Positions 29,343 through 38,559 of a stretch of 64,000 bases of DNA are shown piece after piece. The notes under the pieces are model-generated. The model worked only from the letters and a program-made list of their open reading frames with translations. It was not told the origin of the DNA and ran no database searches. Positions within the stretch are counted from its first letter, which is position 1. Every line of letters begins with the position of its first letter. The position numbers and the translations under genes are program-made. Source of the stretch: Enterobacter ludwigii (GTDB taxonomy: Bacteria; Pseudomonadota; Gammaproteobacteria; Enterobacterales; Enterobacteriaceae); NCBI GenBank assembly GCA_900068845.1, contig CEFQ01000004.1:62159-126158 (forward strand), read 5' to 3'.

Positions 29343-29729
29343 ATGCGTAAGCATGTGATTGCAATGTTGTCTTTGTCGCTGTTGTTCTCCTCGGCTAGCG
29401 TGTTTGCGGCCGATCTGGAAAAAGATATGGATGCGCTCAAAGAGGGGCTGAGCGTGGTGAAGAAAACCTCTGACGCGCAGGAAATGCACACCGCGTTGGG
29501 TAAAATGCGCCAGGCGGCAACGGATGCTAAGCAATCTACGCCGGAAAAACTGGAAGGTCAGGCGGCCGATAGCGCGCAAATCAAGGATTACCATGCCGGT
29601 CTGGATTCGCTGATTGCGCAAATCGACGTGGTCGATAAGTTAGCGCAGGCCAACAAGCTGGATGAAGCCAAAACCGAAGCGAAGAAACTGGAAGAGATTC
29701 GCAACGCCAACCATAAGAAATTCCGCTGA
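29343..29729 (+). CDS. cybC: Soluble periplasmic cytochrome b562
   Basis: A four-helix-bundle b-type cytochrome of 128 residues, the same length as the E. coli precursor. The signal peptide ends VFAA with cleavage before ADLEKDM. The axial ligands are present: Met at mature position 7 (ADLEKDM) and His near the C-terminus (NANHKKFR). The redox partner is unknown. In E. coli K-12 the gene is commonly considered defective for export; here the signal peptide is intact. A weak stem (CCAGCC-CAAC-GGCTGG, about 29741-29756) follows the stop. Confidence 0.93.
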   Translation: MRKHVIAMLSLSLLFSSASVFAADLEKDMDALKEGLSVVKKTSDAQEMHTALGKMRQAATDAKQSTPEKLEGQAADSAQIKDYHAGLDSLIAQIDVVDKLAQANKLDEAKTEAKKLEEIRNANHKKFR

Positions 29730-29814
29730 TAACCCGGCCAGCCCAACGGCTGGTCTTATCCCTTCTTGCCTTTTCACCGTTTTAATCCACATAAACCCAT
29801 CATTTTTCGCATTT

Positions 29815-29830
29815 TGTGACCGATTTCGCA
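29815..29830. promoter_or_regulatory. CRP-like site upstream of the accessory catabolic operon
   Basis: TGTGACCGATTTCGCA matches nine of ten conserved CRP positions (TGTGA-N6-TCACA). It lies in the 253-bp gap between cybC and the PRD gene. A 7-bp hairpin, TTTCCAC-TTCGAG-GTGGAAA (29874-29893), follows. I could not find a convincing -10 at a standard distance, so catabolite control is only a suggestion. Confidence 0.4.
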
Positions 29831-29982
29831 CACTTCGTGCGTCCTGAGATCTGGCGCACACCCGCCCGTGGGATTTCCACTTCGAGGTGGAAAAGATGCG
29901 TCTCAACAGCCTGTAGCGGAAAGCGTAATTTCTTTTCAACGCGAATTATCTGTAATTGTCCGCTGTAAACAGGAGTAACAAG

Positions 29983-30321
29983 GTGAGGAGTGAAGCTGTC
30001 CCGCTGAAACCGAGCACGCCGGAAGCGATTCAGGCGCTGGCGGATAATGTGTTAAGCCAAATTGCCGCGATCTACACCGCACACCACATCGAAGCCAATG
30101 CCGTACAGCAGCAGATGCTGGCTTCGCATGTCCGTGCGATGGCAGCGCGCTCCCTGACGGGTGAAGCGCTGCCAGAGGTCGAGGCTGAACTGTTTGAAGA
30201 TATCTCGCCGCAAACCATGGCGCTGGCGCAGCAGGTGGTGGATCTGTTTGGCAATCTGCCAAAAGAAGAAGCCTGGCTGTTATCGGTCCATATCGAAGTG
30301 GCGAAAGCGAACGAAGCATAA
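29983..30321 (+). CDS. Stand-alone PRD-domain protein (EF_0829 type)
   Basis: A soluble protein of 112 residues made of a single PTS-regulation domain, without DNA- or RNA-binding parts. The two His typical of PRDs are present in ASHVRAMA and LLSVHIEVAKAN. The GTG at 29983 is chosen because AGGAGT precedes it by six bases; a TTG nine codons upstream has no SD. It is the first gene of an operon like EF_0829-EF_0839 of Enterococcus. PRDs elsewhere are phosphorylated by HPr, so this may couple the operon's transporter or enzymes to PTS state, which is inference. Confidence 0.8.
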   Translation: MRSEAVPLKPSTPEAIQALADNVLSQIAAIYTAHHIEANAVQQQMLASHVRAMAARSLTGEALPEVEAELFEDISPQTMALAQQVVDLFGNLPKEEAWLLSVHIEVAKANEA

Positions 30322-30338
30322 ATTGCGAGGAATCGAAC

Positions 30339-30695
30339 ATGGTAACTGTAGTGATTGGCGATCGTCTGGGTAAAGGTCAGAAAGTAGCCGCGGGTATTGA
30401 GAAAGCGGGTGGTCGTGCGGTGGTGGTGCCGGGCGTGGCAGCCGACATGAAGTTGGGTGACGTGATGAAAGCGGAAAACGCTGACTTCGGCATCTCCTTC
30501 TGCGGCAGCGGCGGTGCGGGCGCTATTACCGCGCAGAACAAATATGGCTACAAAGCCAAACACGGCATGCGCTCAATTGACGAAGGGGTTACCGCCATCA
30601 ATGAAGGTGCCACCGTGCTGGGCTTCGGCTTTATGGATAAAGAAGAGCTGGGTGAGCGTCTGGTGCAGGCCTGGACTAAAAAACACGGCAGCTAA
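30339..30695 (+). CDS. Glycine-rich SFCGS-family protein
   Basis: A soluble protein of 118 residues, a member of the family named for the motif SFCGSGGAGAITAQNKYGYK near residue 50. The N-terminus MVTVVIGDRLGKGQKVAAGI looks like the first beta-alpha unit of a small Rossmann or PTS-IIB-like fold. A single Cys in the Gly-rich loop could be a phospho-acceptor or ligand residue; this is speculation. SD GAGGAA is good. DUF4312 starts two bases after its stop. It occurs in conserved clusters with DUF4310-4312 and no activity is established. Confidence 0.82.
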   Translation: MVTVVIGDRLGKGQKVAAGIEKAGGRAVVVPGVAADMKLGDVMKAENADFGISFCGSGGAGAITAQNKYGYKAKHGMRSIDEGVTAINEGATVLGFGFMDKEELGERLVQAWTKKHGS

Positions 30696-30697
30696 GC

Positions 30698-30997
30698 ATG
30701 AAACAGCAATACGAGACGCAGGTAACGGTGCAGGGCAAAGGCGACAGTAAAGCAAAAGCCTTTGCCGATGCGCTGAGCAAGGTGCAGCAGCAAGTGCTGC
30801 GCACCAGCCAAAAGATTCTGTTGCGCATTGAACCCATGGATGTGCGGGTGCTGCGCGCGCAGGAGAGCGTGCGAAAGGAGAAGTTTCTCTTCTTCTTCCT
30901 CGCGCGTGAGCGACGGAATTACAGCGTTGAGCTGGACATTACCGTTAGCGTCACCGTGATCGACACCGAGAACATCACGTTCACGGCGACACCCTAA
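30698..30997 (+). CDS. DUF4312-family protein
   Basis: A soluble protein of 99 residues starting MKQQYETQVTVQGKGDSKAK and ending TDTENITFTATP-like (VTVIDTENITFTATP). It has an alternating strand-helix pattern and no membrane segment. It belongs to DUF4312, found only with the SFCGS, DUF4311 and DUF4310 partners as far as I know. It begins two bases after the SFCGS gene, so the two are translationally linked and probably work together. No function is known. Confidence 0.8.
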   Translation: MKQQYETQVTVQGKGDSKAKAFADALSKVQQQVLRTSQKILLRIEPMDVRVLRAQESVRKEKFLFFFLARERRNYSVELDITVSVTVIDTENITFTATP

Positions 30998-31050
30998 TCA
31001 TCCCAGCATCTAAATATGTAGGGTAAAAACGACAACAAAGGGTCAACATC

Positions 31051-31827
31051 ATGTTTTTAATCATTTTGTTTAAGTCGTTAATCATTGGCGGATTGGTTGG
31101 CGTTGGGGTGGGAGCAGGCGCAGCGCGCATGTTCCACGCCCCGACCACACAAGGTATGGGCGCGTTCCGTACCTTGGGTGAACTCAATTCCTGTGAAGGC
31201 GATCCGGCATCGCACTTCTCCTTTGGTCTCGGCTTCTTCTTTAACGCCTGGGCATCATCCGTTGCGGCAGGCTCCTTCACGCAGGACGTTGACCACCGCA
31301 TCCTGCCGAACTGGGGCGCGGCAGCATTGATGGTGAAGAATCGTAACGTGGCCGAAACGCTGCATAACCCGAAACGCATGGCGATTGCCTGCGGCATCAT
31401 CGGCATGATTGTGGTGGCCTTCCTTAACAGCACCGCATCAGCGGTGCCGGCGGCGCTGCAAGTCACCGCCGTCAAAGTGCTGGTGCCGGCGGCTAACCTG
31501 CTGGTGAACACCGTGATGCCGGTGATTTTCTGGCTGGCCGCGATTGATGCCGGTAAGAAATCAGGTTTCTGGGCCACCATCTTTGGCGGTCTGGCGCAGC
31601 TGATCATGGGCAACGCCGTACCGGGTTTGGTGCTGGGCATCCTGATTGGTAAAGGCGTGGAAGAGAGCGGCTGGAACAAAGTCACCAAGGTGATGATGTT
31701 TGCCATCGTATTGCTGTTTGCCCTGAGTGGCTTCTTCCGCGGTTTCGATATGAAACTGCTGCAATCCTTCCAGCTAGGTATTCCGGGTTGGCTGGATATG
31801 ATCCACAACAGCGTCAGCGGCAAATAA
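31051..31827 (+). CDS. DUF4311 integral membrane protein, putative transporter subunit
   Basis: A protein of 258 residues with about six hydrophobic segments, from FLIILFKSLIIGGLVGVGVG at the N-terminus to VMMFAIVLLFALSGFF near residue 220. A polar segment with the conserved-looking GELNSCEGDPASHFSFGLGF lies after the first helix. SD AAAGGGT. Together with DUF4310 it is presumably the membrane part of an uptake system for the substrate of the enzymes downstream. In the Salmonella dga operon the same place is taken by mannose-type PTS IIC and IID. No similarity to IIC or IID is obvious to the eye. Confidence 0.8.
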   Translation: MFLIILFKSLIIGGLVGVGVGAGAARMFHAPTTQGMGAFRTLGELNSCEGDPASHFSFGLGFFFNAWASSVAAGSFTQDVDHRILPNWGAAALMVKNRNVAETLHNPKRMAIACGIIGMIVVAFLNSTASAVPAALQVTAVKVLVPAANLLVNTVMPVIFWLAAIDAGKKSGFWATIFGGLAQLIMGNAVPGLVLGILIGKGVEESGWNKVTKVMMFAIVLLFALSGFFRGFDMKLLQSFQLGIPGWLDMIHNSVSGK

Positions 31828-31839
31828 GGAGCCATCAGC

Positions 31840-32487
31840 ATGAACGAGAACGAAAACAAAGGGTTCTGGTACGCCGACTGGTCTTTCCCGATTTTTGTTG
31901 GCCTGCTCTCCTCCGGCGTGTTTGCCGGTACCCACATGTATTACCTGTACGGCATTGGTGCGTTTAACGAAGTGGCGTTTGTCTCCATGCTGCGTTCTGG
32001 CATGGAAACCGGCGTGTATGGCGCGGTCGCGGCATTCGGTGCCAGCTTCCTGTTCGCACGCATTATCGAAGGTTCGCTGGTAGGGATTCTCGATATCGGC
32101 GGTGCGATCCAGACTGGCGTCGGCCTCGGCGTGCCCGCGCTGCTGCTCGGTGCGGGCATCGTGTTCCCGGTCGCCAACTTCGCCGCCTCGCTGGCCACCG
32201 GTTTGGTGGTGGGGTTAGCGATTGGTTATCTGATCATCCTGGCGCGTAAGTTCACCATCAACCAGAGCGACTCGACGTACGGTGCAGACGTGATGATGGG
32301 CGCGGGTAACGCATCAGGCCGCTTCCTTGGGCCGTTGATTATCCTGTCTGCCATGGCCGCATCGATTCCCATTGGTCTCGGTTCGCTGGTCGGCGCGCTG
32401 CTGTTCTACCTGTGGAATAAGCCGATTACCGGTGGCGCGATTCTGGGCGCGATGGTGTTGGGTGCGATGTTCCCGATTTCGCTGTAA
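31840..32487 (+). CDS. DUF4310 integral membrane protein, putative transporter subunit
   Basis: A protein of 215 residues with about five to six membrane segments and very Gly-rich helices (GVGLGVPALLLGAGIVFPVAN, GLVVGLAIGYLIILA). The N-terminus is cytoplasmic-looking (MNENENKGFWYADWSFP). It starts 12 bases after DUF4311 behind SD AAGGAG, so the two are made together. A polar loop with DSTYGADVMMGAGNASGR could be a substrate-binding re-entrant segment, which is inference. A 116-bp gap with paired palindromes separates it from the enzyme genes. Confidence 0.8.
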   Translation: MNENENKGFWYADWSFPIFVGLLSSGVFAGTHMYYLYGIGAFNEVAFVSMLRSGMETGVYGAVAAFGASFLFARIIEGSLVGILDIGGAIQTGVGLGVPALLLGAGIVFPVANFAASLATGLVVGLAIGYLIILARKFTINQSDSTYGADVMMGAGNASGRFLGPLIILSAMAASIPIGLGSLVGALLFYLWNKPITGGAILGAMVLGAMFPISL

Positions 32488-32502
32488 TGCGGCTGATTGA
32501 AC

Positions 32503-32575
32503 GGTCGCCATAAATGGCGACCCTACATGTTGGGTGCGCATTTTCAGTCATGTAGGGTGCGCATTCATGCGCACC
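32503..32575. repeat. Paired palindromes inside the catabolic operon
   Basis: GGTCGCCATAAATGGCGACC (32503-32522) and GGTGCGCATTCATGCGCACC (32556-32575) flank a 33-bp spacer. The spacer holds a partial third copy: GGGTGCGCATT occurs at 32532 and again at 32555. The outer words CCCTACATG and CATGTAGGG are also inverted. The element fills most of the only long gap of the operon, between the membrane and enzyme genes, so it may modulate the ratio of the two mRNA halves. Confidence 0.75.
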
Positions 32576-32603
32576 TGGCAACAATCGCAGTATAGGAGTA
32601 AAC

Positions 32604-33737
32604 ATGTTTGATCTGATTCTGCGCCGCGCCCGTCTGTGCGATGAACAGCTGGTAGATATTGCGATCCAGCACGGCAAAATTGCCGCCGTCGGCGAGGTGA
32701 GCGGCGCGGCACAGCAGGAGCGCGATCTCGCGGGACGCTACTACGTCAGCGCTGGCTGGATTGATAGCCACGTGCACTGTTATCCCAAATCCCCGATTTA
32801 TCACGACGAAGCCGACACCATTGGCATGGCGCAAGGCGTCACCACCGTGGTGGATGCAGGCAGCACCGGCGCAGATGATATCGACGACTTTTACCAGCTC
32901 ACGCGTTCGGCCACCACCGAAGTACGTGCGCTGATTAACATCTCGCGCACCGGCATTGTGACGCAAAACGAGCTGGCCGATATGGCACAGATCGATGGCG
33001 AGGCGGTGGTACAGGCGGTGAAACGCCGCCCCGATTTTATCGTCGGCCTGAAAGCCCGTATGAGCAGCAGCGTGGTGGGCGAAAACGGCATTCAGCCGTT
33101 GGTGCGTGCCAAGGCCATTCAGCAGGCGGCGGGCAATTTGCCGCTGATGGTACACATCGGCAATAACCCGCCGGTGCTGGAAGAGATCGCCGATCTGCTG
33201 ACCTCTGGCGACATCATCACCCACTGCTTCAACGGCAAACCAAACCGCATCTTATCGCCGCAGGGCGAGCTGAAAGCGGCAGTAAAAAATGCCATTGCGC
33301 GTGGCGTGAAGCTGGATATCGGTCACGGCGGCGCCAGCTTTAGCTTCGAGGTGGCGCGTCAGGCGATCGCGCAGGGCATTCTGCCCGACACCATCAGCTC
33401 CGATATTTACTGTCGTAACCGCATCAACGGCCCGGTACATAGCCTGGCGCACGTGATGTCGAAATTCTTCAGCATTGGCATGACGCTGCCGCAAATCATC
33501 GCGTGCGTCACCGTTAATGCCGCTGCTGGTCTGCGTCTGGCGGGCAAAGGGCGCTTAACCGCAGGTTATGACGCCGACCTGACCATTTTTACCGTCAAAG
33601 AGGAAGCCCGCCCGTTCGTCGATGCTGAAGGCGAGCGGGTGATGGGTGAACAACATGTGCTGCCGCTGGCCGTGGTTATCGCGGGTCACTGGCATCTGAC
33701 TGATGAAGGGAAAGCGAATCATGTCTTCGATTTATGA
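32604..33737 (+). CDS. Amidohydrolase/deacetylase-family metallohydrolase (EF_0837 type)
   Basis: A cytoplasmic amidohydrolase-superfamily enzyme of 377 residues. Binuclear metal ligands are visible: HVHC near residue 55, the likely carboxylated Lys in FIVGLKARMSSS, His in VHIGNNPP and ITHCFNGKPN, and the Asp in DTISSDIYCRNR. A final beta-sandwich holds GYDADLTIFTV. Related annotated proteins are called N-acyl-amino-acid or dihydroorotase-like deacetylases. In this operon it may remove an N-acyl group from an amino-sugar acid before the ammonia lyase, which is inference. SD AGGAG. The next gene overlaps its end by 17 bases. Confidence 0.85.
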   Translation: MFDLILRRARLCDEQLVDIAIQHGKIAAVGEVSGAAQQERDLAGRYYVSAGWIDSHVHCYPKSPIYHDEADTIGMAQGVTTVVDAGSTGADDIDDFYQLTRSATTEVRALINISRTGIVTQNELADMAQIDGEAVVQAVKRRPDFIVGLKARMSSSVVGENGIQPLVRAKAIQQAAGNLPLMVHIGNNPPVLEEIADLLTSGDIITHCFNGKPNRILSPQGELKAAVKNAIARGVKLDIGHGGASFSFEVARQAIAQGILPDTISSDIYCRNRINGPVHSLAHVMSKFFSIGMTLPQIIACVTVNAAAGLRLAGKGRLTAGYDADLTIFTVKEEARPFVDAEGERVMGEQHVLPLAVVIAGHWHLTDEGKANHVFDL

Positions 33738-34842
33738 AAAATATGACCTGAAGCAGGTCATCAATGCCTCGGGCCGCATGACCATTCTGGGCGTTTCCAC
33801 GCCGTCTGCGGACGTGGTGGATACCGTCAGCTACGGTCTGAATCATTACTTCGAGATGAAAGACCTGGTCAACAAGACTGGCGCTTACATCGCCAAACTG
33901 CTGGACGTAGAAAGCGCGGTGGTGGTGTCGTGCGCCTCGGCGGGCATTGCGCAGAGCGTGGCGGCGGTAATCGTTAAAGATAACGACTGGCTGCTGGAGA
34001 ATCTGCACGCCGCGCCGCTCAGCGTGCCGCACGATATCGTGGTGCCAAAAGGGCACAACGTGAACTTCGGCGCGCCGGTTGGCAGCATGGTGGCACTGGG
34101 CGGCGGTCGCTTGATCGAAGCCGGTTACAGCAACGAATGTTCGCCAGAGCAGCTGGCGGCGGCGATCACGCCGACCACGGCGGCGCTGATGTATATCAAA
34201 TCGCACCACTGCGTGCAGAAAAGCCATCTCAGCGTTGAGCAGGCGGCGGTTGTCGCACGCAAACACGGCATTCCACTGATCGTTGATGCGGCAGCTGAAG
34301 AAGATTTGCAGTGTTACTACCAAATGGGCGCTGATTTAGTGATTTACAGCGGTGCCAAAGCAATTGAAGGGCCGACCAGCGGCTTGGTGATTGGTCGCAC
34401 ACAGTACGTTGAATGGGTGAAACGCCAGAGCAATGGCATTGGTCGCGCGATGAAAGTCGGCAAAGAGGGCATTCTCGGCCTGACGCAGGCGATTGAAAAC
34501 TATCTGGTGCAGCCGAAAACCACAGGCGCTGAGATGGTGACCAACATGACGCCTTTCATCGACAACCTCAACACCCTGAACGGTGTCACCGCGCGCGTGG
34601 TGTGGGATGCGGCGGGACGCGATATCGCGCGTGCTGAAATCAAGTTCGATGAAGCGGTCACCGGCTGGCCGACCGGCGAGCTGGTGCAGGCATTGAAAAC
34701 CGGCGACATCGCCATCTATTTCCGTGGCTACAAAGCCAACGAAGGCATCATCGAAGCCGATGTGCGCAGCGTCAGCGCCGATCAGCTGCACATCATCTTT
34801 AGCGCTATTCAGGCGTTGATCAGCGGAGGAACACGCGCATGA
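33721..34842 (+). CDS. dgaE: DgaE-like PLP-dependent ammonia lyase
   Basis: A fold-type I PLP enzyme of 373 residues (SelA/MJ0158-like). The PLP Lys is in VIYSGAKAIEGPTSGLVIG near residue 215 and the preceding Asp in LIVDAAAEEDL. DgaE of Salmonella removes ammonia from D-glucosaminate-6-phosphate to give 2-keto-3-deoxy-6-phosphogluconate. The start at 33721 follows GAAGGG inside the end of the amidohydrolase gene; a start six codons earlier lacks an SD. It overlaps the aldolase by four bases. The exact substrate in this cluster is inferred, not shown. Confidence 0.85.
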   Translation: MSSIYEKYDLKQVINASGRMTILGVSTPSADVVDTVSYGLNHYFEMKDLVNKTGAYIAKLLDVESAVVVSCASAGIAQSVAAVIVKDNDWLLENLHAAPLSVPHDIVVPKGHNVNFGAPVGSMVALGGGRLIEAGYSNECSPEQLAAAITPTTAALMYIKSHHCVQKSHLSVEQAAVVARKHGIPLIVDAAAEEDLQCYYQMGADLVIYSGAKAIEGPTSGLVIGRTQYVEWVKRQSNGIGRAMKVGKEGILGLTQAIENYLVQPKTTGAEMVTNMTPFIDNLNTLNGVTARVVWDAAGRDIARAEIKFDEAVTGWPTGELVQALKTGDIAIYFRGYKANEGIIEADVRSVSADQLHIIFSAIQALISGGTRA

Positions 34843-35576
34843 GTCTCAACCCGAATTTCTATCAGGGCCGCCTGTGCCTGAATGTGCTGGCCGGTTCGAA
34901 GCAGAATGCCAAAGAAATCTGGCAGGCGGCGGAAGGCCATGTGCTGGTGGGCGTGCTGTCAAAAAACTATGCCAGCAATGACGAAGCGATTGCCGATATG
35001 CGCGAGTATGCTGCGCTGATCGACAATGCGCTCTCAGTAGGTTTGGGCGCGGGCGATCCGAACCAGTCGGCGATGGTGAGTGAAATCTCGGCGGTACTGC
35101 AACCGCAACACGTCAATCAGGTATTCACTGGCGTGGCGACCAGTCGTGCGCTGCTCGGCCAGAACCACACCGTGGTGAACGGTTTGATTTCGCCAACCGG
35201 TACGCCGGGGATGGTGAAAATTTCTACCGGGCCGCGCAGTTCAAAGGGTGCCGACGCGATTGTGCCGATCGACAGCGCCATCGCCATGTTGCAAGACATG
35301 GGTGGCAGCTCGGTAAAGTACTTCCCGATGGGCGGGCTGAAGGCGGTGAATGAGTATCGTGCGGTGGCGGAAGCCTGTGCGCGTCACGACTTCTGGCTGG
35401 AGCCAACCGGTGGTATCGATCTCAACAACTTCGAAGAGATTGTGCGCATTGCGCTCGATGCCGGTGTCAGCAAAGTGATCCCGCACGTCTACAGTTCGAT
35501 TATCGATAGCGCAACCGGCGACACGCGCATTGACGATGTGCGTCAGCTTCTGGCAACGTGCAAGAAACTGCTGTAA
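34839..35576 (+). CDS. dgaF: DgaF-like 2-keto-3-deoxy-6-phosphogluconate aldolase
   Basis: A class I aldolase-type TIM barrel of 245 residues in the KDGP aldolase (EF_0839) family. The likely Schiff-base Lys is in SSVKYFPMGGLKAV near residue 165, and the phosphate/substrate loops include PTGTPGMVKISTGPRSSKG and LEPTGGIDLNNFEEI. It should split 2-keto-3-deoxy-6-phosphogluconate into pyruvate and glyceraldehyde-3-phosphate. The ATGA overlap with the lyase gene implies coupled translation and adjacent pathway steps. Confidence 0.87.
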   Translation: MSLNPNFYQGRLCLNVLAGSKQNAKEIWQAAEGHVLVGVLSKNYASNDEAIADMREYAALIDNALSVGLGAGDPNQSAMVSEISAVLQPQHVNQVFTGVATSRALLGQNHTVVNGLISPTGTPGMVKISTGPRSSKGADAIVPIDSAIAMLQDMGGSSVKYFPMGGLKAVNEYRAVAEACARHDFWLEPTGGIDLNNFEEIVRIALDAGVSKVIPHVYSSIIDSATGDTRIDDVRQLLATCKKLL

Positions 35577-35600
35577 CAAATGAGTAACAGGTGAGGCTCC

Positions 35601-37511
35601 GTGAGATTTCCCAATCAGCGTCTGACCCAGCTTTTCGCTGCGCTGCAAAATGAAACCCTGCCGCAGGACGAACTGGCACGCCGCTTTTCCGTTTCGACGC
35701 GCACGGTGCGCACCGATATCACCGCGCTGAACGCGCTGCTGGAACAGCACGGCGCGCAGTTTGTGCTGGCGCGCGGCGCGGGATATCAACTCAAAATTGA
35801 CGATGCGGCGCGCTTTGGTCGCTTACAGCAAGAGAGCGCCACGCCGCTGCGGGTGCCGCGCACGTCGCAGGAGCGCGTGCGTTATCTGCTGACGCGCTTT
35901 CTCACCGCCGCCTATTCCATCAAGCTGGAAGATCTGTCGGAAGAGTGGTTCGTTAGCCGCGCCACGCTGCAAAGCGATATGGCGATCGTTCGCGAATGGC
36001 TCGGCCGTTATCACCTTAATATCGAAACCAAACCGCATTACGGTATGAAGCTGTTTGGCAGCGAGGCGGCGATCCGCACCTGCTTAACTGACTTGCTGTG
36101 GCAGATCGACCAGGAAACGCCGGAGAGCCCGCTGCTGACGGTGGAAGCACTACACAGCGGCATGCTGGCGCAGCTCGAACCTTTGCTGCAACAGTGCTTT
36201 GCCCAGCACGCGATTCGCCTTAGCGATGAAGGCGATCGTTATTTACAAATCTACTGCGCGGTGGCGGTGCGGCGTATTAGTGAAGGTTTCCCGCTTAACG
36301 ATCCCGGGGCAGAAGATGTGGGCGAGGAAGTGCGCGAAGCGGCACACGACCTGATTAACCTGATGCGTCCGCTGGTCGGCAAGCCGATTTCACAGGCGGA
36401 AGAGAACTGGCTGCGGGTCAACATTGCCGCGCGGCAGATTCAGGCGCTGGCACCCAGCACCATTAATGCCGATGATGCCGATGCGCTGGTCGATTACCTG
36501 CTGAATTACATCAACACCCATTACAACTATCGACTGCAGCACGATGAACAGCTGCGCGCCGACCTGCGCACCCATATCAAAACCATGATCACGCGGGTAC
36601 GCTATCAGATCCATATCCCCAATCCGCTGCTGAGCAACATTAAGCAGCACTATCCAATGGCCTACGATGTGACGCTGGCGGCGGTAACCAGCTGGGGCAA
36701 ATACACGCCTTACACCATCAGCGAAAACGAGATCGGTTTTCTGGTACTGCATATCGGCGTGGGGCTGGAGAGGCATTACGAAGTTGGCTATCAGCGCCAT
36801 CCGCAGGTATTGCTGGTGTGCGACAGCGGCAACTCAACGCTGCGCATGATTGAGGCGCTGCTGCTGCGCAAATATCCACAGTTAGTGGTTACGGCGCGGC
36901 TGTCGCAGCGGGACTACGAGTTACGCGAGCATATTGATGAAGACTTCGTCGTTTCCACTGCGCGGCTGAGCGAGAAGAACAAGCCGATTGTGGTGATGTC
37001 GCCGTTCCCGACCGAATTCCAGCTGGAGCAGCTCGGTAAGCTGGTGCTGGTGGATCGCACGCGTCCTTACATGCTGGAGAAGTACTTCGACGCGCAGCAC
37101 TTTATGGTGCTGGATAAGCCGATGGCGCAGTCGGATCTGTTCCGCCTGCTGTGCAATCAGCTGGAAAGCGAAGGTTTTGTCGATGCGGATTTCTATCCGT
37201 CGGTGGAGGAGCGCGAAGCGATCGTCAGCACCCTGCTCGGCGAAGGCATCGCGCTACCGCATTCACTTGGTTTGCTGGCGCAGAAAACCGTGGTCTACAC
37301 GGTGTTAGCGCCGCACGGCGTCAGCTGGGGTGAGGAGACCGCGTCAGTGATTTTCCTGCTGGCGATCAGCAAAAGTGAATACGAAGAGGCGATGGCGATT
37401 TATGATCTGTTCGTCACCTTCCTGCGCGAAAGGGCGACGACGCGGCTGCGCGATTGCGCGGATTTTGTCAGCTTTAAAGCGGTGGCGATCGATTGTTTGA
37501 GCCGGTTGTGA
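35601..37511 (+). CDS. PRD-containing BglG/MtlR-type transcriptional regulator
   Basis: A regulator of 636 residues. Parts in order: a DNA-binding HTH_11 domain (about 1-60, ELARRFSVSTRTVRTDITAL), a second HTH-like domain (about 85-155), two PRDs (about 170-395) and an EIIB-like domain with CDSGNST (about 405-490). An EIIA-like domain with active-site-type His in IALPHSLGLLA (about 500-636) ends it. This MtlR-like layout means DNA-binding activation controlled by PTS phosphorylation, not RNA antitermination. The start is GTG. It is the last gene of the cluster it most likely controls, 24 bases after the aldolase. Confidence 0.87.
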   Translation: MRFPNQRLTQLFAALQNETLPQDELARRFSVSTRTVRTDITALNALLEQHGAQFVLARGAGYQLKIDDAARFGRLQQESATPLRVPRTSQERVRYLLTRFLTAAYSIKLEDLSEEWFVSRATLQSDMAIVREWLGRYHLNIETKPHYGMKLFGSEAAIRTCLTDLLWQIDQETPESPLLTVEALHSGMLAQLEPLLQQCFAQHAIRLSDEGDRYLQIYCAVAVRRISEGFPLNDPGAEDVGEEVREAAHDLINLMRPLVGKPISQAEENWLRVNIAARQIQALAPSTINADDADALVDYLLNYINTHYNYRLQHDEQLRADLRTHIKTMITRVRYQIHIPNPLLSNIKQHYPMAYDVTLAAVTSWGKYTPYTISENEIGFLVLHIGVGLERHYEVGYQRHPQVLLVCDSGNSTLRMIEALLLRKYPQLVVTARLSQRDYELREHIDEDFVVSTARLSEKNKPIVVMSPFPTEFQLEQLGKLVLVDRTRPYMLEKYFDAQHFMVLDKPMAQSDLFRLLCNQLESEGFVDADFYPSVEEREAIVSTLLGEGIALPHSLGLLAQKTVVYTVLAPHGVSWGEETASVIFLLAISKSEYEEAMAIYDLFVTFLRERATTRLRDCADFVSFKAVAIDCLSRL

Positions 37512-37526
37512 TGGAGGATGCCCGCC

Positions 37527-37646
37527 GTCCCCCATCCCAGCCTTCCCCCGCAAGCGGGGGAAGGAGACGCTGCCACATGCAACTCAGAACTAACATGTGG
37601 CAGCATCCTCCTCCCCCATTTATGGGGGAGGACCGAGGAGGGGGAC
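37527..37646. repeat. 120-bp cloverleaf-like inverted-repeat element
   Basis: The outer ends GTCCCCC and GGGGGAC are inverted, and three strong hairpins lie inside. CCTTCCCCCG-CAAG-CGGGGGAAGG is at 37541-37564. GCTGCCACATG...CATGTGGCAGC with 14-nt loop is at 37569-37604. TCCTCCCCCAT-TT-ATGGGGGAGGA is at 37609-37632. The left and right halves resemble each other in inverted orientation. GCCCGC occurs just outside both ends (37520 and 37648), perhaps a target duplication. It fills the gap between the regulator and yhaJ stops and encodes nothing. It may be a MITE-like element or a strong bidirectional transcription block. Confidence 0.65.
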
Positions 37647-37659
37647 AGCCCGCACCTAC

Positions 37660-38559
37660 TTAACCGCGCTTCGCTAGCAACCTCGGAATCTCACGCAAAC
37701 ACCAGGCTTTCGCTTCGCCCATGCTGTCGCGGCGCCACGCCATAATAATATCCACTTCGCGCGTATACTCTGCGCTCACCACGCGTAAACGCCCCTCGGC
37801 GATATCTTGCTCCACCATCGGATAGGGCATCGTAGCCACGCCCAAACCTGCCAGCAGTGCGCGACGTTTATCATCCATGCTGCTTACCGTCAGACGCTGC
37901 TGCTTATCCAGTAACTGCACCGTCAGCACCGGTCGCTCGCGCGCCGTATCCGCTACCGCAATGCCGCGGTATTTTACGCGCGTCACTTCTGACAGCGGCT
38001 CAGCTTCCTGATGAATCGGATGATCCGGGCTGGCAACGTAGACGCTCATAATGCTGTAAAGCTTGCGGGTGTTGATTTCGGTTGAGGCGCGAAAGTGCAG
38101 ATCCGGGGCAATAACGATATCGGCGCGCCCCTGTTCCAGCCGCTCCCAGGCACCGGCTAACACTTCGGTGATCAGCGAAATCTGCGTATTGGCTTTTTCT
38201 GACAGCTTTTCTACCAGTGGAAACAGACGTTCGGTAGGAACCAGCGCTTCGGCCACGATGGTGAGATGCGTTTCCCAACCGCGCGCTAGCGCTTCAGCAT
38301 CGGTGGTGAGTTTATCGGCGGCTTCGAGCAGCACGCGGCCACGTTCCAGCAGCATGCGACCCACATTGGTGAACTTGGTGCGGTGGCCGGAACGGTCAAA
38401 CAGCACCACATCCAGCTCCTCTTCCAGCTTCTGCATGGTGTAACTCAGCGCGGAAGGGACGCGACCCAGTTCATCGGCCGCAGCGGCAAAGCTGCCACGG
38501 CGGTCAATAGCATCCATCACACGTAAAGCTTCAAGGGTTAACGCGCGGTCTTTTGCCAT
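37660..38559 (-). CDS. yhaJ: LysR-family regulator YhaJ
   Basis: A LysR-type regulator of 299 residues (298 in E. coli YhaJ). The N-terminal winged HTH (ALRVMDAIDRRGSFAAAADE then LGRVPSALSYTMQKLEEEL) is nearly identical to E. coli, followed by the effector domain from about 90. In E. coli YhaJ activates yhaK and influences yqjF and virulence genes. It is divergent from yhaK, which is its likely target, and its 3' end meets the cloverleaf-like element. Confidence 0.95.
   Translation of the reverse strand: MAKDRALTLEALRVMDAIDRRGSFAAAADELGRVPSALSYTMQKLEEELDVVLFDRSGHRTKFTNVGRMLLERGRVLLEAADKLTTDAEALARGWETHLTIVAEALVPTERLFPLVEKLSEKANTQISLITEVLAGAWERLEQGRADIVIAPDLHFRASTEINTRKLYSIMSVYVASPDHPIHQEAEPLSEVTRVKYRGIAVADTARERPVLTVQLLDKQQRLTVSSMDDKRRALLAGLGVATMPYPMVEQDIAEGRLRVVSAEYTREVDIIMAWRRDSMGEAKAWCLREIPRLLAKRG

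What the first reader, a model, noticed from the sequence alone, without database searches (positions are those of the whole stretch)
29983..37511. EF_0829-EF_0839-type operon: a possible undescribed uptake and catabolism system
Nine co-directional genes encode a free PRD protein, SFCGS, DUF4312, two membrane proteins (DUF4311, DUF4310), an amidohydrolase, a DgaE-like lyase, a DgaF-like aldolase and a PRD/EIIB/EIIA regulator. The families are known mainly as a conserved cluster; no transport or enzymatic activity is established to my knowledge for the four SFCGS/DUF proteins. In Salmonella the dgaE and dgaF genes sit behind mannose-type PTS genes (dgaABCD). Here five other proteins hold that place. 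I infer that DUF4311 plus DUF4310 form the permease and SFCGS plus DUF4312 are cytoplasmic components.
Basis: partly seen in the sequence, partly recalled or inferred. Interest (0 to 1): 0.85.

Follow-up and report, generated by a model that had tools for sequence, protein, structure and literature searches.

The report
Amino-sugar-acid operon with orphan transporter
This nine-gene operon, found with the same enzyme set in relatives from Pantoea and Salmonella to Bartonella and Enterococcus, is predicted to import an acylated amino-sugar acid and likely breaks it down to pyruvate, using four proteins with no assigned function, one of which has the predicted fold of a sugar-phosphate isomerase.

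Summary
In detail: nine co-directional genes at 29983-37511 match the EF_0829-EF_0839 families. Of 83 relatives surveyed (the 80 closest of 370, plus three records), 82 carry the deacetylase, DgaE-like lyase and DgaF-like aldolase; the other is cut by its contig end. New here: (1) SFCGS is likely related to DUF2620 (E. coli YhfU), and its model has an RpiB/LacAB fold with the catalytic-type Cys kept; the DUF4312 model resembles dodecin. (2) The lyase keeps the three arginines docked to the 6-phosphate in Salmonella DgaE, yet no kinase lies in the Gram-negative operons read. (3) A 20-bp palindrome upstream is conserved in 80 of 81 loci and is the only such site found in the genome. (4) A Bartonella plasmid carries the same nine genes plus an HPr-EI fusion. 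Best reading: uptake and catabolism of an N-acyl 2-amino-2-deoxy-aldonate. Transport, the phosphorylation step and the substrate are untested. DUF4311/4310 gave no confident fold, a link to YhfT failed the sequence test, and a link to chitin LPMOs was tested and not supported. No function for the four DUF proteins was found in the open-access library searched.

The parts
29815..29830 (+). CRP-like site TGTGA-N6-TCGCA (9 of 10 consensus positions)
   Evidence: 26 of 81 upstream regions have 9 or more matches, about 1% of mononucleotide shuffles do; 55 of 81 do not; consensus recalled
29874..29893 (.). operator palindrome TTTCCACTTCGAGGTGGAAA, predicted site of the operon's PRD regulator
29983..30321 (+). 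free PRD protein (GTG start), His49 and His103 invariant in 85 of 85
30339..30695 (+). SFCGS protein, RpiB/LacAB fold predicted, Cys55 invariant in 90 of 90
30698..30997 (+). DUF4312, dodecin-like fold predicted (a lead)
31051..31827 (+). DUF4311, integral membrane protein, putative permease half
31840..32487 (+). DUF4310, integral membrane protein, putative permease half
32604..33737 (+). EF_0837-type amidohydrolase (COG3964-like, recalled), predicted N-deacylase
33721..34842 (+). DgaE-family PLP ammonia lyase, phosphate-site Arg304/335/349 kept
34839..35576 (+). DgaF-type 2-keto-3-deoxy-6-phosphogluconate aldolase
35601..37511 (+). HTH-Mga-PRD-EIIB-EIIA regulator (GTG start); His325, His384, His392, Cys407, His554 invariant in 81 of 81

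Best explanation
This operon is predicted to take up an N-acylated 2-amino-2-deoxy-aldonate (an oxidised amino sugar such as N-acetylglucosaminate) and would convert it to pyruvate and glyceraldehyde-3-phosphate under likely control of the PTS and CRP. Shown by sequence: gene content, order, conservation, active-site residues, operator. Inferred: DUF4311 and DUF4310 form the membrane carrier, with SFCGS (RpiB fold) and DUF4312 (dodecin-like) as its cytoplasmic partners; the amidohydrolase removes the N-acyl group; the DgaE-like lyase removes ammonia to give a 2-keto-3-deoxy-aldonate-6-phosphate; the DgaF-like aldolase splits it. In 35 of 83 loci a 7-bladed lactonase would open the aldonolactone first. 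The regulator, phosphorylated by HPr and PTS partners on its PRD, EIIB and EIIA sites, would bind the palindrome at 29874-29893 and switch on the promoter. Where the 6-phosphate comes from (transport, a genomic kinase such as KdgK, or an imported phosphate ester) is open.
For: Families over cut-off. Linkage: of 83 loci (80 genome-contig loci, E. faecalis, Bartonella, Klebsiella) 83 have PRD, SFCGS, DUF4312, DUF4311 and DUF4310; 82 have the amidohydrolase, DgaE and DgaF; L011 is cut. Salmonella (STM4440-4448) and a Listeria-labelled contig agree. Lyase: His163 and Arg304/335/349 are kept in 83 of 83; by my count on the alignment these Args match Arg301/332/346, where the 6-phosphate was docked by hand in Salmonella DgaE (PMC9529869, passages). 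DgaF is over its cut-off. Amidohydrolase residues H56, H58, K150, H184, H207, D267 are near-invariant (97% or more) in 90 rows (that these are the metal ligands is recalled). Lactonase PF10282 in 35 of 83. Operator in 80 of 81 at 6 or fewer mismatches and 70 of 81 at 4 or fewer; shuffles reach 6 or fewer in 1.1% and 5 or fewer in 0.12%; only match at 2 or fewer mismatches in the 5.08 Mb genome. In Salmonella, STM4441-2 are listed as crp-regulated and, like STM4446, as raised in a permissive caecal community (PMC11000858, passages). The Bartonella plasmid has the nine genes plus HPr-EI. Precedent for the chemistry: GlcNAc1A is deacetylated, deaminated and phosphorylated to KDG-6-P in Pseudoalteromonas (PMC9537276, abstract and passages).
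Against: No step is biochemically tested. In Pseudoalteromonas the deacetylation and deamination precede phosphorylation, whereas the lyase here keeps a phosphate site, so the order differs or the manual docking misleads. No kinase in the Gram-negative operons read or among the annotated genes of the Bartonella plasmid, whose gene table is incomplete. DgaE is below the equivalog cut-off for D-glucosaminate-6-P. The AA10 LPMO link failed: 14 of 69 operon genomes have an LPMO against 13 of 80 without the operon, Fisher p 0.53, and the window's own genome has none. DUF4311/4310 gave no usable model. The loci are the 80 closest of 370 found and are nearly all Enterobacterales. E. faecalis has no close copy of the palindrome before its regulator gene (8 mismatches), nor does L075 (10).
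Confidence: 0.55

Rival explanations
1. The DUF proteins are a phosphorylating permease of a new, non-PTS-homologous type: HPr phosphate would pass over the free PRD (His49/His103) and Cys55 of SFCGS to the substrate while DUF4311/4310 carry it in.
For: Lyase and aldolase of phosphate-binding type, no kinase in the Gram-negative operons read; the Bartonella plasmid adds HPr-EI and no annotated kinase; Cys55 90 of 90, His49/His103 85 of 85; parallel yhfU-yhfT-yhfY set in E. coli.
Against: The SFCGS model matches RpiB, no EIIB among the 50 rows shown; HPr-EI would be needed for the regulator in any case; E. faecalis has a PfkB kinase in its locus; the window genome has KdgK.
Confidence: 0.12
2. 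SFCGS is an enzyme, an isomerase or epimerase of the imported sugar acid, not a transport subunit; DUF4311/4310 alone would transport.
Against: DUF2620, its likely relative, stays next to a membrane protein in the yhf clusters, whose enzymes differ, and as a yhfU-yhfT pair without other yhf genes in L115; SFCGS lacks the C-terminal tail of RpiB.
Confidence: 0.3
3. The operon serves specifically the C1-oxidised end of chitin made by LPMOs (GlcNAc1A), the missing OngB/OngC of Aeromonas.
For: Similar reaction series in the ong pathway; two Aeromonas strains have LPMO, KdgK and KdgA homologues but only distant or no matches to OngB/OngC (PMC11653859, passages), and the families here are named after AHA_3910 to AHA_3917 (that AHA is A. 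hydrophila is recalled); lactonase in 35 of 83.
Against: No association with LPMO_10 in 149 genomes of the window's family, p 0.53; own genome has no LPMO.
Confidence: 0.2
4. The substrate is an N-acyl D-amino acid or acylated hydroxy acid outside sugar metabolism.
For: An Agrobacterium enzyme of cog3964 was annotated as dihydroorotase and reassigned (reference cited in PMC12524618, passages); that the window's amidohydrolase belongs to cog3964 is recalled.
Against: The aldolase is a KDPG-type enzyme over its cut-off and the lyase keeps sugar-phosphate residues.
Confidence: 0.1

Closest known systems
Salmonella dgaABCDEF (D-glucosaminate, mannose-family PTS)
   Same: ends in a DgaE lyase and a DgaF aldolase; PTS-controlled (PMC4987338, passages)
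   Different: transport by a mannose-family PTS; LevR-type sigma-54 activator DgaR; no deacetylase gene in the operon as listed. Salmonella also holds the operon described here (STM4440-4448)
ong cluster of Pseudoalteromonas (oxidative chitin, GlcNAc1A)
   Same: deacetylation, deamination, KDG-6-P, pyruvate branch
   Different: SSS transporter OngIT, D-aminoacylase-type OngB, OngC, own KdgK, MurR/RpiR-type repressor OngR
E. coli yhfS-yhfZ
   Same: free PRD protein (YhfY; hhalign E 2.6e-5 to the free PRD here), DUF2620 (YhfU) directly beside a polytopic membrane protein (YhfT), PLP and hydrolase genes
   Different: other enzymes, one large membrane protein, no DUF4312 seen; YhfT not shown to be related to DUF4311/4310
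RpiB/LacAB isomerases
   Same: predicted fold, Cys-Gly-Ser-Gly loop
   Different: 118 residues, no C-terminal tail, beside membrane genes in the 83 loci surveyed

Membership tests
[quoted passage not shown]
   His163 83 of 83; Lys213 83 of 83, taken as the PLP lysine from the SGAK motif, whereas the passage in PMC9529869 prints Lys-217
[quoted passage not shown]
   R304, R335, R349 83 of 83; site assigned by manual docking in the paper
[quoted passage not shown]
   367.7 of 600 bits
KDPG aldolase DgaF | NCBIfam equivalog cut-off NF047796 | tested here: met
   388.5 against 300 bits
PTS permease | EIIC, EIIB or EIIA domains in the transport genes | tested here: not met
   no PTS family in SFCGS, DUF4312, DUF4311, DUF4310
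RpiB/LacAB isomerase | fold | tested here: met
RpiB/LacAB isomerase | catalytic-loop cysteine | tested here: met
   C55 aligned with the E. coli RpiB CGTG cysteine, 90 of 90; that this Cys is catalytic in RpiB is recalled
RpiB/LacAB isomerase | C-terminal tail (phosphate-binding arginines, recalled) | tested here: not met
   the last residues of E. coli RpiB have no counterpart
DUF2620 (YhfU) | sequence homology to SFCGS | tested here: inconclusive
   for: Pfam E 0.0047, under the cut-off, BLASTP E 4.3e-6 in a set of 16 proteins, shared Cys and Gly loop; against: hhalign of shallow alignments E 0.023, probability 2%
Dodecin | beta-alpha-beta-beta fold over the whole chain | tested here: inconclusive
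YhfT membrane family | sequence homology to DUF4311 plus DUF4310 | tested here: inconclusive
   hhalign scored below the reversed controls in every setting tried; the fold model failed
ong oxidative chitin pathway | presence with an AA10 LPMO | tested here: not met
   14 of 69 against 13 of 80, p 0.53
ong oxidative chitin pathway | OngB and OngC orthologs | not tested
   sequences of OngB and OngC were not fetched

The most novel reading that the evidence does not exclude
An RpiB-fold protein with an invariant cysteine, a polytopic membrane protein and a free PRD form a recurring transport module, found once with a deacetylase-lyase-aldolase pathway (this operon) and once as yhfU-yhfT-yhfY in E. 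coli, and it is a new class of PEP-driven phosphorylating carrier outside all known PTS permease families.
Probability: 0.1. Interest if true: 0.95.

Novelty: new variant of a known kind. Interest (0 to 1): 0.6.

Why it matters
The operon is common: 69 of 149 sampled genomes of the window's family hold DUF4310, and it was read in Salmonella, Klebsiella, Serratia and an enterococcus, yet four of its nine proteins have no assigned function. Giving SFCGS an RpiB fold, DUF4312 a dodecin-like fold, a likely tie of SFCGS to E. coli YhfU, and an operator make a named set of tests possible (reporter on one palindrome, candidate inducers, Cys55 mutant). It may also supply the deacetylase and deaminase reported missing in Aeromonas.

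Tried and rejected
YhfT equals DUF4311 plus DUF4310 fused: looked right by eye, but hhalign at default settings gave E 0.45-0.59 while the two reversed controls gave 0.11 and 0.16, and the controls were better in every other setting too; dropped. SFCGS against DUF2620 by hhalign of the same shallow alignments was weak (E 0.023, probability 2%); the relation rests on the other results. First joint alignment A7 misplaced the DUF4310 rows and was not used. Structure of DUF4311-DUF4310: mean pLDDT 43.4, not searched. LPMO co-occurrence: no association. DUF4310 in viral contigs: 32 pattern hits, no relative. E. coli: megablast of the operon found none in a collection of 5,426 genomes, but that mode misses DNA below about 85% identity; the DUF4310 profile does not ring in the E. 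coli control genome. Rfam: nothing in 29600-37800. Promoter scan: one sigma-70 match, outside the operon, fewer than shuffles. Profile search of YhfT in PDB: nothing. Fold searches: families not listed are not excluded. The class sample found SFCGS only in the own genome (1 of 321); the phylum sample found DUF4310 in 7 of 299, all of the window's family. The palindrome search of 60 relatives gave matches in 28; I did not check where those of the other genomes lie. The shuffles for palindrome and CRP site keep base composition only, and the loci are related, so their counts are not independent.

Literature searches on which 'no published role found' rests: in the open-access PMC library only. 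The 2013 Salmonella D-glucosaminate paper was not held. PMC12017989 (OngB) was seen in the listing only.
Full report
What is there. Nine + strand genes fill 29983-37511. Eight match, over the curated cut-off, the family that their neighbours would predict: free PRD (TIGR03582), SFCGS (TIGR03577), DUF4312 (TIGR03578), DUF4311 (TIGR03580), DUF4310 (TIGR03579), amidohydrolase (TIGR03583), DgaE family (TIGR01437), aldolase (TIGR03581 and NF047796); the ninth is a regulator with HTH_11, Mga, PRD and EIIA domains. Spacing is tight, with -17 and -4 nt overlaps among the enzymes. The window lies in a 5.08 Mb genome of 100 contigs; the closest loci are Pantoea.

Neighbourhood test. Of 83 loci (80 from genome contigs, the best of 370 relatives found; plus E. 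faecalis, Bartonella and Klebsiella records), 83 carry all five upstream genes, 82 the amidohydrolase, lyase and aldolase, and 81 the regulator; the misses are contig ends (L011, L033). A Salmonella record, with the genes as STM4440-4448, and a Listeria-labelled contig (its regulator match is partial and weak) agree. This sample is heavily enterobacterial, so the statement is strong there and thin elsewhere. DUF4311 proteins are also listed from Lactiplantibacillus, Companilactobacillus, Carnobacterium and Parageobacillus, whose neighbourhoods I could not read.

Variations. A 7-bladed lactonase (PF10282) sits between the aldolase and the regulator in 35 of 83 loci. E. faecalis has in addition an EIIC, a small protein with three hydrophobic segments, a MupG-like 6-phospho-muramidase and a PfkB kinase; the kinase is a distant relative of E. 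coli KdgK (26% over 224 columns). A Bartonella plasmid has the nine genes followed by one protein with HPr and all EI domains, and no annotated sugar kinase elsewhere on the plasmid (the gene table of that collection is incomplete). That the host lacks a sugar PTS is what I recall of Alphaproteobacteria, not a test.

The membrane pair. DUF4311 and DUF4310 each show five hydrophobic segments in a simple hydropathy scan, SFCGS and DUF4312 none. They are extremely conserved (66-73% identity between the window's proteins and Gram-positive members), which starved the structure prediction (pLDDT 43). Permease is an inference from position and membrane nature.

A parallel in E. coli. The yhf cluster has a free PRD (YhfY), DUF2620 (YhfU) and a membrane protein (YhfT). 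In nine clusters fetched (of 20 sites listed), yhfU is next to yhfT in 9 of 9; one pair stands without the other yhf genes in its 12 kb stretch (L115); a YhfY was detected in 7 of 9. YhfY and the free PRD match by hhalign at E 2.6e-5. The window's own genome has such a cluster too (L113). This favours a link between the RpiB-fold protein and a membrane partner rather than particular enzymes. A homology of YhfT with DUF4311/4310 is not shown: reversed controls scored better.

The enzymes and the phosphate puzzle. In Salmonella DgaE the 6-phosphate was docked by hand at Arg301, Arg332 and Arg346, with His163 as proton donor (PMC9529869, passages). The aligned residues here, counted by hand on the alignment, are Arg304, Arg335, Arg349 and His163, all 83 of 83; His162 is kept in 82 of 83, and the residue at the docked carboxylate, Arg226, is Arg in 34 and Lys in 49. 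The aldolase is over the cut-off of the DgaF model and is close to several solved putative KDPG aldolases. So the lyase substrate is likely phosphorylated, but no kinase is in the Gram-negative operons read. The genome has a KdgK 72% identical to E. coli's, and no second lyase over the DgaE-family cut-off. In the ong pathway of Pseudoalteromonas, deacetylation and deamination come first and KdgK acts on KDG (PMC9537276, abstract and passages). Three solutions remain: phosphorylation on entry, a genomic kinase, or import of a phosphate ester.

Regulation. A palindrome, TTTCCACTTCGAAGTGGAAA, stands upstream of the first gene: 80 of 81 regions have it with 6 or fewer mismatches and 70 of 81 with 4 or fewer; shuffles reach 6 or fewer in 1.1% and 5 or fewer in 0.12%. 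L075 has none (10 mismatches). Bartonella has a 5-mismatch version; E. faecalis has none before its regulator gene (8). The window copy, 29874-29893, is the only match at 2 or fewer mismatches in its genome, with none for the reversed control pattern. A CRP-like site lies at 29815-29830; 26 of 81 regions have one of that quality against about 1% in shuffles, and 55 do not. A Salmonella study lists STM4441-2 as crp-regulated (after RegPrecise) and lists them and STM4446 as raised with a permissive caecal community (PMC11000858, passages). The regulator keeps His325, His384, His392, Cys407 and His554 in 81 of 81. That PRD, EIIB and EIIA sites of such regulators are phosphorylated is recalled.

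Substrate. The chemistry fits an N-acyl 2-amino-2-deoxy-aldonate. The ong pathway and the note that two Aeromonas strains have LPMO, KdgK and KdgA homologues but no close OngB or OngC (PMC11653859, passages) suggested chitin oxidation as source. I tested it: in 149 genomes of the family, 69 have DUF4310, 27 have LPMO_10, 14 have both; Fisher p 0.53. The window's genome has no LPMO. The sample includes reduced genomes, which I did not take out. The chitin link is therefore not supported in this family, though a compound made by other microbes would leave no such trace.

Other papers seen as passages only: PMC7396535, PMC13001218, PMC2912369, PMC7701990, PMC10746210, PMC11448024, PMC4987338, PMC7432712, PMC12524618. 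PMC7701990 suggests that EF0839 and EF2975 may belong to amino-sugar metabolism, in line with this reading. PMC4987338 gives dgaABCDEF as STM3772-66.

Verdict. A real, conserved and unassigned catabolic operon. The enzymatic half is a variant of a known kind; for the transport half I found no relative of known function, and it is the interesting part.

Noticed in passing
window 37519-37654: A palindromic element of about 140 bp (arms 61 nt, 72% complementary) directly behind the regulator gene; 20 further copies of 125 bases or more at 82-92% identity in the same genome, a MITE- or REP-like family.
   Followed up: partly
L113 6126-11590 (G000:C10): The window's genome also holds a yhf-type cluster (yhfT, yhfU, yhfW, yhfX, yhfY and a further gene), with YhfT only 37% identical to E. 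coli's.
   Followed up: partly
149 genomes of the family: Genomes with DUF2620 (yhf) also have DUF4310 more often than others, 15 of 18 against 54 of 131 (p 0.0009); reduced genomes in the sample may cause this.
   Followed up: partly
L090 121-7085: The Bartonella plasmid carries its rep, par and toxin-antitoxin-like genes twice as an inverted duplication beside the operon.
   Followed up: no
L089 14414-15502: E. faecalis version holds a MupG-like 6-phospho-N-acetylmuramidase and an EIIC between DUF4310 and the amidohydrolase, which hints at a phosphorylated glycoside entering the same pathway.
   Followed up: no
window 33721-34842, relatives: The residue aligned with the carboxylate-binding Arg226 of Salmonella DgaE is Arg in 34 and Lys in 49 of 83 lyases.
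   Followed up: no
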